Source: Brettanomyces bruxellensis (taxonomy: Eukaryota > Ascomycota > Pichiomycetes > Pichiales > Pichiaceae). Taken from it: DNA of 64,000 nucleotides. The stretch is from contig NC_054690.1 in assembly GCF_011074885.1 (NCBI RefSeq), forward strand, positions 2,795,001-2,859,000, given 5' to 3'. The notes below the pieces were generated by a model. That model did not search any database, was not told the origin of the DNA, and was given only the letters and a program-made list of their open reading frames with translations. The position numbers and the translations under genes were made by a program. This document shows positions 7,635 through 31,279 of the stretch, in pieces (the first letter of the stretch is position 1; each line of letters begins with the position of its first letter).

Positions 7635-8107
7635 TCATTTCGCAGCCGAACTTATAGCAGTAGTGGTAACCGAAGATGCAACCGCAGTAACTGAAGATGC
7701 AACTGCTGTGACTGTTGAAGCAACTTTACTTGGAGGAGCCCGACCCATTTTTGGGAATATAATATCCAAATAACTGACAAGAACAGAAACGGTAGCAAAT
7801 ATTATTTTCATAATTGGTGGTTGTGACTGATCAGCTGGATCCGATATGAGAGGCTCATTTAAATACGATTGAAAAGCAATGAAAAATGCAGACCATGCAA
7901 TAGCTTTGTTTCTTAGAAACATCGCAACCATCGGCATGTTCGATGCTGCAAAGTCTGATGCTTGAGTTTTTGGTGCCAAAGGAGTGTGCACATACCTACT
8001 CGCATGTACTCGTGAACTGTTAGTATATGTTCATTTAACAAAAAAGTACGGATAATTAGTACAACATACCTTTTCACTAGTTCTTCTCTAATTGCTTCCT
8101 TACCCAT
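7635..8107 (-). CDS. Asterix-like PAT-complex subunit (UPF0139 family), one intron
   Basis: Complement of join 7635-7995 and 8070-8107, 132 aa. Exon 1 encodes MGKEAIREELVK; the donor is GTATGT, the branch point TACTAAC, and the acceptor gives continuation at RYVHTPLAP. An acceptor 3 nt upstream (adding one residue) would also keep frame. Two hydrophobic helices follow: RNKAIAWSAFFIAFQSYL and IMKIIFATVSVLVSYLDIIF, with a short polar loop between. Spacing and residues (K-x-x-A-W-x-A, V-S-Y-L) match Asterix/WDR83OS, an ER chaperone that with CCDC47 shelters membrane-protein helices during insertion. The C-terminus carries a small tandem repeat (VTAVASS). Identification comes from pattern memory. 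It is a small conserved two-TM protein in any case. Confidence 0.65.
7996..8069 (-). other. spliceosomal intron in Asterix-like gene
   Basis: 74-nt intron on the minus strand with donor GTATGT, branch point TACTAAC and acceptor TAG. The octamer AGGTATGT occurs at both splice junctions. Confidence 0.8.
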
Positions 8108-9810
8108 GTTTAACTTTGTTCTTTTTTGAAATACTTTTACACTCCAGAAAAGTCTCTTGTTATCGATACGGGATGATACGTGATAGTTTTTAATTTGAGT
8201 TTTCCTTGCGTTGATATTCTGAAAAAAATGTCCATTAAATTTTGAATACAAAAAATAAATAGCGACCCGACGAAAAATCGATGGAGATCAATATTTCGCA
8301 CTTACTTACTTACTTACTTTCATGGCTTAACTTACACTTCACCTCACTATTCACTTTTACTTTGTATATCACTCACTGCCTTATCATCATTATCATTTTT
8401 TTTTTTGTGAAATGATTAACTAAGTTATTCTAAATGATTATTCTAATCTGAAACAAACCATGAATAAATATTTAAATGTAAAATTCTTTTCTTGGAGTTT
8501 CATTAAGATTTCCAGTCTACTTGGTAAAAGTAATAAAGTTGGAATCAAATTGGAAGAAAAAAAAAAATAGTACTATTCTAGATTAAACATGAAAATTATT
8601 TGTTCTGATGACCTACTAATGGCATATAGTAAACAAAGTATGGTAAACTTTAAACCTCCGAATACTTTTATGGATTACAAAAAGAAAATCCCTTGTTCAT
8701 AAAGAAGTCGTTGCGCAATAAATCTTTGTATACATCCGTGCACGAAAGATTCTTCAATACCTAAATGGAATAACTCTTCTTATTGAAGAGCGTTCGAACT
8801 ATGATTATCTCCGTGTCAAGTCCGCAGTTTCGGTAAAAATAATACGAATGGCCCTATTAAAGATGGACTGTGCATTAATCAATTATCTTGACGTCATAGA
8901 TAAATTATTTCTTACATCCGGTTACAGCTTTGATAGCCTGATAAGGGGAAAATCAGGAGTATACAGCAGAGAACTGCAGTCAAGGTTGCCTCCGCTTTTT
9001 CTCCGCTTTTAAGTGGCAAAGCAAATAAAGTTAAACAAATCGGAAATACAAATTACAGAATTCACTCAGTGGGAGAACTAATGTCACAATCGTCATTCTG
9101 TAATGACATTAAAATCTATAGTATAGATTTTCAAATGCAGGGTATCTAGTAATGAAAATGCTCTTCCGATATGTAATTTGTTCTACTTTTCTATCCCTCA
9201 TCCCCCACCCCCAAAAAAAAAACGCTACAATTGGGAATTTAGGCGTCTCCGAAATCTGACTCCGAGACTTCAACTTTTCGGGTCGCTGACAATCAGAATG
9301 GTATCGTTTATGCTGGGTAAGAATTCTTCGCGTTTGCTGACCATAAAAGGTTTCGAGGGATGCTGCCCAAAAATTTTTTTTCGCTCAAAGTAGAAGCAAA
9401 AAAGGAGGAGGGAAACAAAAAAAAAAAAAAATGATAATAGACCATTAGAAAAAGGTTCTTTCACTTGGGACTTTGGTTAACTACTAACGCTGCTTTTGCC
9501 CTTCGTTTTATTATCTCAACTTTTGCCCAGTAAGATTTAGTATATTTCCACTTTCACAACAGATCTTGACCAGTAATAGTCATATTTGTTCTTCCTGAAA
9601 CTACTATTTCATCAGAGTTTGAGGAAGGCAGATTTTATCACTTGAGTACCATCACCTGGGACAGCTTTTCTTATTTATTTTCAGTGTGGTCTTTAAGTGT
9701 GTTGTTCGATTATTCCATTTCCAAGAATACAAAATCAAACTGCACCATTCTGTTACTGCAATTTTATAACAGCAGCTAAGTAAAGGATCACTCTTGTGTT
9801 GAAAGGAAGC
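8108..9810. other. long intergenic region upstream of HMG-CoA reductase
   Basis: 1.7 kb without a supportable gene. It holds the promoter of the Asterix-like gene, a CTTA/TTAC microsatellite at about 8302-8322, two adjacent palindromes at 9092-9131, A-tracts near 9210 and 9420, and the HMG1 promoter. A TCGTTTA at 9304-9310 resembles the Upc2/Ecm22 sterol or anaerobic response core, which would suit HMG-CoA reductase, but it is a single match. Confidence 0.5.
9092..9131. repeat. two adjacent palindromes
   Basis: GTCATT (9092-9097) and AATGAC (9102-9107) form a 6-bp stem with a 4-nt loop. Immediately after it, AAAATCTATA (9111-9120) and TATAGATTTT (9122-9131) form a perfect 10-bp inverted repeat around one central base. 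It lies about 680-720 bp upstream of the HMG1 ATG. No known element is recognised. Confidence 0.6.
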
Positions 9811-26368: not shown

Positions 26369-27529
26369 TTAATCAGAGATACTTAGGTATTCTGCGTAAT
26401 TCTTGTCCAGCTTTTGAAGAGTGATACCCGGTCCTAGTTTTTCTAGCTGTTCAAACGTGTCCTTAAGAAGCCCTGTATGTCTATTTTGTGCACCTTCTTT
26501 GCGACTTATGAGAAACTCATAGCGGTCATCTTCACATTTCTGATTCTGGCGTTCTTCCCAATAAAGGCCATCTAACCCAAGATCAGACTCCAACAAAATA
26601 TTTTGGACACCAACATAATGAAGTTCAAATGCCTTACGTAACCTTTCCTTGTATCGCTCTAAATTTAGCACCTTGCTGATGCTAAACTTGATGTTTGGAA
26701 AAGATTTTGTATAAACTCTAATTTGTTCGATCGAGCCTGAATATGAGTGTAAGTCTATCCATTCGCTCGAATAGGTTTTGCCGTTTCCTCCTCCGAAGAT
26801 TTCTTTTAAAATGTTAAACAGCTTACCATCATTTCCAACACAATGTAAACTAATATGCCTATGTAGTTTCTTTGCCAATAAGAGAAATTGTTTCAAAATT
26901 TTGACCTGATGTTCCATGCTTGTTCTAAATGGGGATCGATCAGTACATTCAAAAACCTTACTTTTTAATTTTGGATTGTCGATCCATTCCTGGCACTCTT
27001 TAACCCCTAAATATCCACATTGAGGAACCCTGAACACTTTATCAATTCCAATTTCACCAATTCCACTCTTCGGATTTTCTAATAGAAGTTGCTCTATCCT
27101 CTTTATAAATTCAGGGAAGTATATTGGAACAGGTAAAGCCATGAGTAATTCGTCTGATATTTCCTTTGAGGGTTGAAAAATTGAACTGTAATGCTTTCTT
27201 TTTATTTCCATCGTTGTCAAGTATCCGTCTTCCTGATCAAAATTTTCAAACGTAAATAAATGTGAAAACCAAGGATGCACGCCGTAATTCGGATTTACGA
27301 AGCAGGGAAAGTTCTCCGAAAGATCGTGAATCAAACTATAGTCTATAAAGTTCGTCGACATCATATTTAAGCAATATCGTTTTTGAATATTGAAGCCTCG
27401 CTCAAAATCTATCTTTCTGCTCAATTGTAGTTTTAAGTTGTTGTACTTCGTGTGAGTTACCCCAGGAGAAAGATGGCAGTGTGCATCGAATAAGTATTCC
27501 TGTCCAGAAATTTGTGTGTAAGTCGTCAT
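26369..27529 (-). CDS. TatD-family metal-dependent hydrolase (YMR262W-like)
   Basis: 386 aa. TatD signatures appear in order: FDAHCHL at residues 14-20 (H17, H19 as metal ligands), NYGVHPWFSH, GIGEIGIDKV (metal-bridging Glu), ISLHCVG, DLHSYSG, and LLESDLGLDG (catalytic Asp). The family contains deoxyribonucleases/exonucleases with a TIM-barrel fold. S. cerevisiae YMR262W is a diverged relative of about 313 aa, and this protein has a longer first half with inserted loops. The exact substrate is unknown. It lies downstream of and in the same direction as the Artemis-like gene, with about 216 bp between, and convergent with the PPxY protein gene. Confidence 0.8.
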   Translation of the reverse strand: MTTYTQISGQEYLFDAHCHLSPGVTHTKYNNLKLQLSRKIDFERGFNIQKRYCLNMMSTNFIDYSLIHDLSENFPCFVNPNYGVHPWFSHLFTFENFDQEDGYLTTMEIKRKHYSSIFQPSKEISDELLMALPVPIYFPEFIKRIEQLLLENPKSGIGEIGIDKVFRVPQCGYLGVKECQEWIDNPKLKSKVFECTDRSPFRTSMEHQVKILKQFLLLAKKLHRHISLHCVGNDGKLFNILKEIFGGGNGKTYSSEWIDLHSYSGSIEQIRVYTKSFPNIKFSISKVLNLERYKERLRKAFELHYVGVQNILLESDLGLDGLYWEERQNQKCEDDRYEFLISRKEGAQNRHTGLLKDTFEQLEKLGPGITLQKLDKNYAEYLSISD

Positions 27530-27745: not shown

Positions 27746-29624
27746 TCATATTAAATGTGAAATCCTTTCCCTTATTTTAGTGATATTTCTTGCACGTAAC
27801 TTTCTTCTCTTTTTCTTTTGGGAGTTTTCGTTACACTCGATGAAGTCACAATTATAACGGTTTCGACTGTTCGTTGGTTTGACGTCAACCTCAAATTTAG
27901 TCCACCGGGAGTATTTCGCATATGACGCAGATGTAGACGAAGATGCGTCGCTAGCTGTTGCCGAAGAATTAAAAGAGCACGTTACGTGAAACGAAGTGGA
28001 ATTCTCGGATTTCAGTTTTTCATCAATTTCAATGTTCTTTGCAACCATCGCACCTTTAAGCTGTCCTGATGATTTTGAACTTTGAGAATCAGTTGAATTC
28101 GAATCACTTGGGCTTAGCGGTGTATTTCTACTGATACCTCTATTTATGGCATTGGAAAGGTCCTCTATAGCATTTTTACGATTTCGTGTCACAACAGCCC
28201 GGTCACACCCAGAGAGTACGTTCAGGCGTGATATTGCAAATTTCTCTGAAAATTGAGTTCTTTTGTATCCGCTGAACTGACCCATAAATTCGAGCTCATG
28301 TCGTTTATCTTCATTTTTTAACAAGCTATAGTCCCAATAATTAACTATTTCGATTTTTTCCTTATTATTAATGGGGGATTGTCCGTACTTGGAAATCATT
28401 TCATTATCATATCTGAAGTTTTGACAAAGGCAAGCAAATGAAAAGTATCTCTTCATAGTAAATCCTCTCATCCATGTTCGGACGTCACTTACTATAGGAT
28501 ATAATTCGCAAACATGTTGCTTGAATAATGATATAAATGTAAGGCATTCCCGACATGAACTGTGTCTAGAAAATATGAATCGAAGATCTAATGGCAGAAA
28601 TAATCCAGTCTCTTTATTTTGTATGTACGCCTTTGAGACTCTAGTCGTAGAATTTCCGGTGTTATAATTAAAATCGCATGAATAAAATGTATACTTCATA
28701 TTAGTCCGTTTTTCAACAGAATTAAATTCTTCCATTCTCTTCTCGCCGTACATATTGTCAAATTCAAATTTTGTCAGGTCTATTGATGCTGATATTGATA
28801 CCATACATTGGTCAAACTCTTTCCCAATAAAAAATTGGTATCTTGTATCTAAACAGGATGTGTTCCCTTCGCATTGCACCAGGAGACTATCTAAAGTGTC
28901 GACTGGGTTGACATACAACTGCGAATGATCTTTTGGATGATGAACGTAGCGAAATCTTCGTTTCATTTCCTCCCCAAAAGTAAAGCTCTGAACCCCAAAC
29001 GCATCTGCTAGCCGTATCCAAACCTCTTCAAATCCAAAAGTTGTGTTCAATAATCGGAATGTGGTTCCTTTTGGGTATTTCCGAATCATGTTAATTAGTT
29101 TCCTAATTCCGATGTATCTATCCATTATATCAATATTTTGAGTTCTGTACGCAAAAGTTGTATCAAGATATATGGCATCCAAGCATGCGGTGCCTCGCTG
29201 TGTATTTCATTAGTTTCTGGTTCATTTTTAAGGAAAAAATTGTTGGCATATCGAATCTTGCATCTCCTGTAAATAATACATTCTTATCATGCGTTTCAAA
29301 GAGAATCATGGCAGATCCCAAGCAATGGTATATTGGAATAAATGTGACTCTAATCTTTCCCTGACCCAAGGTTAATGTTTTGTTCATCGGACATGGCCGC
29401 AATTTGTCGAGGTTTTTATTATATTTTGATTTTTCCAATGAACAAATTAGTTTCTTTGTGATTTCTGTGCAGTATATTTGAAGGTTTCCAATGGAATTAG
29501 CAAGACCCGATAGATGATCAGAATGTGCATGAGAAATGAAACCATAATGCACCTGATCAGTCAATTTTATGAAATTGTCCACCCGTATGTAGGGAATTTC
29601 TGGAATTATGCCGCTAAACTGCAT
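27746..29624 (-). CDS. Artemis/SNM1-like metallo-beta-lactamase nuclease, interrupted by a +1 frameshift
   Basis: Two overlapping frames: 29624-29163 (153 codons) and 29182-27746 (478 codons). Dropping one base at 29180 joins RHRML to DAIYLDTTF and gives a 625-residue product. Motifs: ISHAHSDHLSG (residues 30-40, metal ligands H32, H34, D36, H37), HCLGSAMILF, FTGDARFD and YLDTTF, all core beta-CASP nuclease signatures. The metallo-beta-lactamase domain begins at the very N-terminus after F-S-G-I-I-P-E-I-P-Y-I-R-V-D-N-F, as in Artemis (DCLRE1C). S. cerevisiae Pso2 has a long N-terminal extension. The C-terminal third is Ser-rich and ends in a basic KKKRRKLR segment. Family role: DNA end processing or crosslink repair. 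The shift site reads ATG CTT GGA TGC. It may be a sequencing error, a pseudogene lesion or programmed +1 slippage on CUU. Confidence 0.8.
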
Positions 29625-30058
29625 ATCCTCTCTAATTACTCAAACACCTTTTTCAAATTTCAAAAGTGAGCATCACAAATGATCAGCAAAAGGCAGTGAT
29701 ACAACGACTGATAAGAAGGATGACTAGTTACAGGCATATGTAATAGCGAGAGCGCTTTGGCAGTGCTTTTTTTTTTTTTTTTATGATTAGACTTGGTGCT
29801 TACTACCTTCAAATTCTCCTTTCACTCTAAGTCTAACTTTCAGTCATTTTACCACCCATGAATAGCTTGATTTATATCCAGTTGAAAATAAATTCGGCTA
29901 CAACTAACTAAGGAAAACAAAATAACATAAGCGTGTTCTTTCCTAAGATCAAAAACTGCCAACAACTACCCTATTGGAATAGAAAGTCATCAAATCGTCT
30001 ATACAGTTCGTAATAACAGATAAAAGGAAAATAAAAATTTGGAGGCAAGAAGTTCTGA
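29625..30058. other. intergenic between Artemis-like gene and PDX1
   Basis: 434 bp. It contains a 17-18 bp T-tract at about 29767-29783 and no gene. It holds the promoter of the Artemis-like gene and the 3' region of PDX1. Confidence 0.5.
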
Positions 30059-31279
30059 TTAAGCAAACTTTCCCTCGATCTGACTAATGTAGCTACCAAA
30101 TCTAGAAATGAATGCCTCAGCCTTCTTTTTGGAGTCATAAACCTTGTCGTTGCAGGTTAATTCAACATTAACGGCAGTTGCCGGAGTGGATGATTTCTTG
30201 ACTGGCTTTTGCTCGTATGGCTCAAAATCGAAATCATCAATGATTTCATCTGTAGCCGTTGGTTTGGATGGAACCACACTGATGCTGTAGTTAACCTTGA
30301 ACCTTTCCGCATTTCTTGGAGGAGCAATCAAATCCTCAAATAGAGGATCAATGAGATCTGAAGAGGCATAGTTCTTTGTAGCGTATGCAGCAGTTTCTGC
30401 CTTTGCCACAGCACTTGCAATCAACTTAGAAAGAACCTTAGGGGGAATCTCCTTTGAAATGATGAATTCACCCTTAACCAATGTTGGTTGTTTGACTGGC
30501 TTCTTCGTCTCTGGTGCAGCCTTCTCCCCAGCAGCCTCCTTGGCTTCGTCCTTTGCTGGTTCCTCGACCTCTTTACTAGCTAATTCTATGTGAGAGAGAT
30601 CTAATTTCTCACTATCTGCTATGAAAGAAGCAATTCTGGTGTTTTCCTCTGCTGGTATTTTACCCAAATAAGCGAGCACATCACCCTTAAGAATTTTGCC
30701 GTTAGGACCTGTTGCGGTGATCTTACTAAGAGCATCTTCCCGTGAAATCCCTTCTCTGGCTAGCATAAATTCAACAGATGGGAAAAAGACTTGATCTGGA
30801 TTAGCCTTACCACCCGTAACACTATTCGAAGATGCCTTTGGAGCTGGTGTAGGTTCAGCAGCTGCAGGCTTGGAGGTATCAGCAGCAGCAGGCTCTGGTG
30901 CAGAAGCGGCATCAAGAGCGGGATACTTTAGAGTTGCTAAATCATCAGATTGGTCACAAATAAATGCAATTGGAGCTCCGACTTTAACATCATTTGTGCC
31001 CCCAGGAACTATGATTTTTGCAAGCTTACCGTCATCCCCAGCATCAACTGACATTGTGGCTTTATCTGTCTCAACATCTAAAAGCTCATCTCCAGCACTG
31101 AAATCATCACCCTCTTTGACTTTCCAGGCAACAACACCACCCACATCCATTGTAGGAGACATGGCTGGCATTTTGAAAATCGTTGCATCTAATTTCATCA
31201 ATGTTGTACTGAAAGTACGGCGACTCAATGAAATCTTCGCCAAACTTCTTGAAGCCTGTAGATTGATAATTCTGAACAT
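30059..31279 (-). CDS. PDX1: pyruvate dehydrogenase complex protein X (E3-binding protein)
   Basis: 406 aa. A mitochondrial presequence (MFRIINLQASRSLAKISLSRRTFSTTL) precedes a lipoyl domain at about 30-105, with the lipoylated Lys in DVETDKATMSVDA (K73). A Pro/Ala-rich linker follows. Then comes a peripheral subunit-binding domain (VFFPSVEFMLAREGISREDALSKI...GRILKGDVLAYLG type) at about 163-208. The C-terminal half lacks the HxxxDG catalytic motif of E2 acyltransferase, which identifies Pdx1 rather than Lat1. Pdx1 tethers E3 (Lpd1) to the E2 core in the matrix. It is divergent from NOC3. Confidence 0.93.
   Translation of the reverse strand: MFRIINLQASRSLAKISLSRRTFSTTLMKLDATIFKMPAMSPTMDVGGVVAWKVKEGDDFSAGDELLDVETDKATMSVDAGDDGKLAKIIVPGGTNDVKVGAPIAFICDQSDDLATLKYPALDAASAPEPAAADTSKPAAAEPTPAPKASSNSVTGGKANPDQVFFPSVEFMLAREGISREDALSKITATGPNGKILKGDVLAYLGKIPAEENTRIASFIADSEKLDLSHIELASKEVEEPAKDEAKEAAGEKAAPETKKPVKQPTLVKGEFIISKEIPPKVLSKLIASAVAKAETAAYATKNYASSDLIDPLFEDLIAPPRNAERFKVNYSISVVPSKPTATDEIIDDFDFEPYEQKPVKKSSTPATAVNVELTCNDKVYDSKKKAEAFISRFGSYISQIEGKFA

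What the first reader, a model, noticed from the sequence alone, without database searches (positions are those of the whole stretch)
29163..29200. Artemis-like nuclease gene split by a single +1 frameshift at CTT-GGA-TGC
Seen: two overlapping frames each carry half of a beta-CASP nuclease, and skipping one G at 29179/29180 joins RHRML to DAIYLDTTF, exactly where the family has x-x-Y-L-D-T-T-F. Known: yeast +1 programmed sites (Ty1, ABP140, EST3) slip on CUU into UUN before a slow codon. Here CUU followed by GGA would slip to UUG. Inference: programmed frameshift, recent pseudogene or assembly indel.
Basis: partly seen in the sequence, partly recalled or inferred. Interest (0 to 1): 0.75.

Follow-up and report, generated by a model that had tools for sequence, protein, structure and literature searches.

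The report
Conserved frameshift in yeast nuclease gene
In a Brettanomyces-like yeast, a gene for a DNA-repair-type nuclease is written in two overlapping reading frames, and a second species keeps the same break at the same place, so the cell probably makes the protein by letting the ribosome skip one base, a rare trick known from only a handful of ordinary yeast genes.

Summary
On the minus strand, ORF1 (29624-29163, 153 codons) and ORF2 (open 29206-27749) each carry part of one Artemis/SNM1-like metallo-beta-lactamase/beta-CASP nuclease. A +1 step after CTT (29183-29181), skipping G29180, joins them without a gap against nine intact relatives. Assembly error and recent pseudogene are both unlikely. 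A second, unnamed species (76% identical in ORF1, 59% in ORF2) has an ORF1 of the same 153 codons and an ORF2 beginning at the same YLDTTF, and the two ends fit together only in the +1 frame. Neutral drift to that divergence would leave about 12 stops in ORF2 (0 of 400 simulations stop-free). The split rows form one clade beside intact Brettanomyces genes. Best reading: obligatory, conserved +1 ribosomal frameshifting. It differs from the S. cerevisiae CUU_A type: the next codon is GGA, a common codon, and CTT_GGA is not avoided in other genes. No upstream RNA hairpin was found, and the downstream fold is weak. Why the ribosome slips is therefore open. A tRNA-Leu census, which would help decide, could not be run because the genome search was unreachable. 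There is no ribosome or protein evidence here.

The parts
29163..29624 (-). ORF1, frame 0: metallo-beta-lactamase part with HxHxDH (H32, H34, D36, H37), H100 and D121; ends at TGA 29165-29163
27746..29206 (-). ORF2, +1 frame: beta-CASP part with YLDTTF (D154) and SRHSS (H354) and a divergent tail; 486 open codons and a stop, no ATG before codon 20 counted from the TTG at 29182
29163..29206 (-). 44-base overlap of the two frames, the stretch in which the shift must occur
29181..29183 (-). CTT, proposed P-site codon (re-pairs to TTG)
   Evidence: choice of codon inferred
29180..29180 (-). base read in neither productive frame (G here; A or C in the second species)
29178..29180 (-). GGA, frame-0 A-site codon (common, not rare)
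30059..31279 (-). neighbouring PDX1-like gene; adjoining locus tags in B. nanus and Pichia inconspicua show that the nuclease genes are orthologues in place

Best explanation
One gene for an Artemis/SNM1-like nuclease whose full-length 625-aa protein needs a conserved +1 ribosomal frameshift. Ribosomes start at the ATG at 29624-29622 and read ORF1 to CUU. Some move one base forward, skipping G29180, and continue in ORF2; the rest read five more codons to UGA and release a 153-aa fragment that lacks the beta-CASP part. Shown: two overlapping frames, conservation of both in two species, the +1 relation in both, and a split clade compatible with one origin. Inferred: that the ribosome makes the step, that it does so with tRNA-Leu slipping from CUU to UUG, and that the short product is a by-product. 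Unknown: efficiency, stimulator, regulation.
For: Same split at the same place in a second species at 76%/59% identity. Enumeration of the overlap in that species: 216 codings fit in the +1 frame, none in the +2 frame. 0 of 400 neutral simulations keep ORF2 stop-free (mean 12.1 stops). The product carries L|D like the relatives: L or I before the junction in 9 of 9, D after it in 8 of 9. The skipped base differs between the species while the +1 codons around it stay near the family. Split rows form one clade, support 100/99. ORF2 has no ATG near its start shared with the second species.
Against: No ribosome or protein data. GGA and CTT are common codons and CTT_GGA is not avoided: 15 seen, 10.6 expected. 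No upstream hairpin; the downstream fold is only z -1.73. The profile does not fix the shift codon: steps after GCG143 (490.0) and ACA142 (489.0) score above CTT148 (487.1). ORF1 alone could have stayed stop-free by drift (48 of 400). The DNA, the Leu codon and the name of the second species are unknown.
Confidence: 0.82

Rival explanations
1. A truly split gene: ORF1 and ORF2 are made as two proteins that assemble, ORF2 by internal or non-ATG initiation.
For: Both frames are conserved. ORF2 has a TTG at its family start in the window, and ATG at YLDTTF in the second species.
Against: The window has no ATG before codon 20 counted from that TTG, and the ATG of the second species is ATA in the window, so no start codon is shared. 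ORF2 stays in the family reading up to the exact junction and overlaps ORF1. Metal-site residues lie on both sides in the middle of a folded domain.
Confidence: 0.09
2. A pseudogene, or a gene dying in both species, inherited with one old frameshift.
For: The gene evolves fast: 59-76% identity, against 86% for a PDX1 relative that may or may not be from the same species.
Against: 0 of 400 neutral simulations leave ORF2 without a stop; catalytic motifs are kept in both halves.
Confidence: 0.04
3. The frame is mended before translation: a spliced intron, RNA editing or transcript slippage.
For: A branch-like AACTAATG and a following ACACAG lie just before the junction.
Against: No GTATGT, GTAAGT or GTACGT donor on this strand in 29000-29700; a splice from the weak GTATTA (29279) would remove the TGD motif. 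Relatives are collinear over the junction. +1-frame stops lie between the T6 and A5 runs and the overlap, so slippage there cannot join the frames.
Confidence: 0.03
4. Assembly or sequencing indel.
For: Single-base indels are common errors (general knowledge).
Against: The same split in separate database clusters of the same species and in a second species.
Confidence: 0.01

Closest known systems
S. cerevisiae +1 frameshift genes and elements at CUU: ABP140, EST3, YFS1 (YPL034W), LLP1, Ty1 (PMC12719033, PMC12661321, PMC5009743)
   Same: Two overlapping ORFs, ORF2 in the +1 frame without a shared start codon of its own, CUU at the step, conserved across species; Est3 is a telomerase subunit and Yfs1 resembles a GIY-YIG nuclease, so DNA-end proteins recur
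   Different: Their site is CUU_A (AGG or AGU; CUU_CGG in three species) with a slow A-site codon; here CUU_G.GA_U with a common one. The papers place these cases in Saccharomycetaceae; the present gene is in a Brettanomyces-like yeast (Pichiaceae)
OAZ1 antizyme (GCG_UGA_C in S. cerevisiae, per PMC12719033)
   Same: +1 direction, cellular gene
   Different: There the step is at a stop codon; a step at the UCU_UGA here scores 19 bits below the CTT step
Artemis / SNM1C (DCLRE1C) and relatives SNM1A and Apollo
   Same: Best solved relatives by sequence (6tt5, E 2.4e-17; SNM1A 3.8e-12; Apollo 7.7e-12) and, for intact P0006, by fold (6tt5, E 4.3e-19)
   Different: Written in two frames; own long C-terminal tail; activity untested

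Membership tests
Conserved +1 frameshift gene (general kind) | Two overlapping ORFs, the second in the +1 frame, together one protein | tested here: met
Conserved +1 frameshift gene (general kind) | Arrangement conserved in another species under selection on both halves | tested here: met
   One second species. The ORF1 half is not decisive alone
Conserved +1 frameshift gene (general kind) | Ribosomes change frame at the site | not testable with these tools
   no profiling or reporter data held
Ty1/ABP140/EST3/YFS1-type CUU_A site | CUU in the P site | tested here: inconclusive
   CTT in the window; the second species has a Leu, codon unknown
Ty1/ABP140/EST3/YFS1-type CUU_A site | A after CUU and a slow A-site codon | tested here: not met
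   G after CTT; GGA is the commonest Gly codon. Second species: [AC]GN
Ty1/ABP140/EST3/YFS1-type CUU_A site | tRNA-Leu(UAG) present and tRNA-Leu(IAG) absent | not tested
   genome search unreachable; the 50 tRNA loci in hand hold CAA and TAA Leu tRNAs only, from a capped list
Artemis/SNM1 beta-CASP nuclease | HxHxDH, further H and D of the metallo-beta-lactamase part, D of YLDTTF and H of SRHSS (motif roles recalled) | tested here: met
   H32, H34, D36, H37, H100, D121 in ORF1; D154, H354 in ORF2
Artemis/SNM1 beta-CASP nuclease | Fold | tested here: met
   for the intact relative P0006 only; sequence match for the joined protein:
Artemis/SNM1 beta-CASP nuclease | Nuclease activity | not testable with these tools
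   needs a bench assay

The most novel reading that the evidence does not exclude
A separately evolved +1 frameshift in the Brettanomyces lineage that does not rest on a slow A-site codon: an unknown element (nascent peptide, flanking sequence, or the state of tRNA-Leu) makes CUU_G.GA_U shift and so sets the amount of an Artemis-like nuclease, perhaps in response to DNA damage or starvation.
Probability: 0.3. Interest if true: 0.78.

Novelty: new variant of a known kind. Interest (0 to 1): 0.62.

Why it matters
The papers seen list only five S. cerevisiae chromosomal genes with +1 frameshifting (ABP140, EST3, OAZ1, YFS1, LLP1), and explain the CUU cases by the unusual tRNA-Leu set of Saccharomycetaceae. 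A conserved case in a Brettanomyces-like yeast, with another codon after CUU, would be an independent origin and a direct test of that explanation. It would add a further DNA-end protein (beside Est3 and perhaps Yfs1) made through a frameshift. Gene calls that split this gene in two, as in the database entries here, hide an Artemis-like nuclease.

Tried and rejected
Intron: none of GTATGT, GTAAGT or GTACGT on this strand in 29000-29700; relatives collinear. Transcript slippage at T6 or A5: +1-frame stops lie between those runs and the overlap. Step at the UCU_UGA stop, antizyme-like: 467.9 bits against 487.1 for the CTT step. Steps of -2: lower than +1 at 12 of the 14 codons where both were scored, higher at ATA152 and TCT153. 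Upstream stem-loop as reported for ABP140: none (z +1.77; 199 of 200 shuffles fold at least as well); two stretches across the site are also ordinary (z -0.20 and 0.35). Rfam in 28900-29400: no match up to E 1. The code tool with CTTG read as one word: not usable, since the word occurs in frame elsewhere. Avoidance of shift-like pairs in 52 ORFs: CTT_GGA 15 against 10.6 expected and CTT_AGG 6 against 6.4 are not avoided; CTT_AGA (6 against 12.6) and CTT_AGT (4 against 9.6) are low, CTT_CGA (8 against 3.6) high; numbers are small, and loci L014 and L032 overlap, so some ORFs may be counted twice.

Not done: the census of CUN tRNA-Leu genes. The pattern search was answered 'no whole genome is held'. 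A second pattern, sent in the same turn, met a machine that could not be reached; the same request was repeated 17 times without an answer.

Full report
What is there. The window is 64 kb of a 13.1-Mb genome in nine contigs. Among the named database hits the nearest are Brettanomyces: B. nanus for this gene, B. nanus and B. naardenensis for the neighbour. On the minus strand, ORF1 (29624-29163) holds a metallo-beta-lactamase part (Lactamase_B_2, E 8.4e-08). ORF2, in the +1 frame (29206-27746), holds the beta-CASP part. They overlap by 44 bases. Joined after CTT (29183-29181) with G29180 skipped they give 625 aa. Among solved structures the best sequence match is human Artemis (6tt5, E 2.4e-17, query residues 2-229); SNM1A (3.8e-12) and Apollo (7.7e-12) follow.

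Relatives in one frame. In the protein database 28 proteins match the joined query at E up to 0.001. P0003 (99%, 478 aa) and P0004 (59%, 477 aa) cover only the ORF2 part. Nine others that I aligned in A1 (P0005-P0008, P0010-P0014) run through the junction in one frame with no gap in 15 columns before and 14 after it; L or I stands before the junction in 9 of 9, D after it in 8 of 9 and N in P0007. The neighbour PDX1 has the adjoining locus tag in B. nanus (FOA43_000431 beside 000430) and in Pichia inconspicua (CANINC_000869 beside 000868), so these are orthologues in place.

The split is conserved. A search with ORF1 alone gave three proteins: P0031 (97%, 153 aa, ending ARHRMLGCHIS like the window), P0032 (76%, also 153 aa, ending ARHRMLRCYVS) and P0033, a distant protein without bearing here. 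P0032 and P0004 list the same longest contig (429613 bases), so I take them for the two halves in one genome. The end of P0032 and the start of P0004 (MYLDTTF) must overlap in the DNA. Enumeration of all codings shows this to be possible in the +1 frame (216 solutions) and not in the +2 frame; the pattern is [CT]TN [AC]GN TGY TAT GTA TCT TRR. That D follows MYL makes the stop TGA (my inference). Between the species the frame-0 residues before the step are kept (ARHRML in both). After it the frame-0 residues differ (GCHIS against RCYVS), while the +1 frame keeps YL and, at the place before, I against M. The skipped base is G in one and A or C in the other. This is what decoding with the step after the Leu predicts.

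Not a pseudogene, not an error. Neutral evolution of ORF2 to 40% amino-acid change gave 12.1 stops on average and no stop-free run in 400. ORF1 to 24% gave 2.0 stops and 48 stop-free runs in 400, so ORF1 alone proves little (substitutions only, no indels). In a tree of ORF2 parts (22 of 26 rows; four rows without the exact string YLDTT were dropped by the script) the three split rows form one clade (100/99) beside P0005 and P0006 (87/78), which are intact; one change of state suffices. Two of the three rows are near-copies, and the tree carries a long-branch warning for P0017, so it shows no more than that one origin is enough. The clusters with the split stand for 40, 13, 4 and 1 member sequences and 2, 1, 49 and 105 contigs (P0003, P0031, P0004, P0032).

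Where the step occurs. Only steps after codons 139-153 of ORF1 gave a long product; 29 such products scored 467.9 to 490.0 bits against a profile of 21 relatives. The +1 steps after codons 141-148 lie within four bits of one another, and two of them (GCG143 at 490.0, ACA142 at 489.0) stand above CTT148 (487.1), so the profile does not fix the codon. I prefer CTT because the product then has L|D as in the relatives (a +1 step at ATG147 would give the same protein), because frame-0 residues are kept up to that Leu in the second species, and because CUU can re-pair to UUG. A step at the UCU_UGA stop is 19 bits worse.

How it may work. PMC12719033 (section 2, part 1 of 2 of section 4, section 5 and the discussion read) and PMC12661321 (abstract and passages) describe CUU_A.GG_C and CUU_A.GU_U sites in S. 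cerevisiae: peptidyl-tRNA-Leu(UAG) slips while a slow codon waits. PMC12719033 links this with the absence of tRNA-Leu(IAG) and reports that species branching before Saccharomycetaceae do not need frameshifting for YFS1, and, citing Farabaugh et al. 2006 (not seen by me), the same for ABP140 and EST3. Here the next codon is GGA. In 23 window ORFs CTT is the commonest Leu codon (26.6 per 1000) and GGA the commonest Gly codon (19.4). In 52 ORFs, with this gene left out, GGA is again first for Gly and TTA passes CTT slightly (592 against 584); CTT_GGA is seen 15 times against 10.6 expected, twice before T. So neither a slow codon nor avoidance is seen, and the seven bases alone should not shift much. 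There is no upstream hairpin (z +1.77); 93 bases downstream fold a little better than shuffles (z -1.73, 14 of 200). Either a low yield is enough, or a stimulator is present that I did not see. The tRNA census that would help decide could not be run; the 50 tRNA loci in hand, taken from a capped list, hold Leu tRNAs with CAA and TAA only, which does not show that the others are absent.

Structure. An AlphaFold2 model of intact P0006 (mean pLDDT 75.8; residues 1-12 and 423-537 under 50) matches Artemis best in the PDB (6tt5, E 4.3e-19, TM 0.68 by target length). The junction falls at P0006 residue 156, just before strand 158-161. Presumed metal ligands lie on both sides (H32, H34, D36, H37, H100, D121 in ORF1; D154, H354 in ORF2; roles recalled), so neither half alone should cut DNA (inference).

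Print. Searches for frameshifting with Brettanomyces, Dekkera or Pichiaceae and for Artemis/SNM1/Pso2 in yeasts showed no title on this gene. I saw listings only, cut (15 of 21; 15 of 26; 8 of 347); most subscription journals are not held. PMC5009743 and PMC2876123 were read in passages only.

Noticed in passing
26369-27529 (-): The next gene downstream encodes a TatD-type DNase (PF01026, E 8.4e-19), so two nuclease-like genes lie side by side.
   Followed up: no
7635-8251 (-): Two overlapping ORFs; the lower one resembles Asterix (PF03669) weakly, below the curated cut-off, from profile position 37 on, so its start may lie in another exon or frame.
   Followed up: partly
L001 (G000:C8:1739343-1739747): The only DRMBL (PF07522) match that the search of the own genome returned lies here, not at this gene; probably the PSO2-type paralogue (name recalled).
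   Followed up: no
P0005 (B. nanus FOA43_000430): The B. nanus protein starts only at the place of the HxHxDH motif (MTHHLAGF), so its first part may be mis-annotated or lie in another exon or frame.
   Followed up: no
52 ORFs of window and loci: CTT_AGA, CTT_AGT and CTT_AGC are seen at about half the expected number (6 of 12.6, 4 of 9.6, 2 of 5.1), CTT_CGA at twice (8 of 3.6); small numbers.
   Followed up: no
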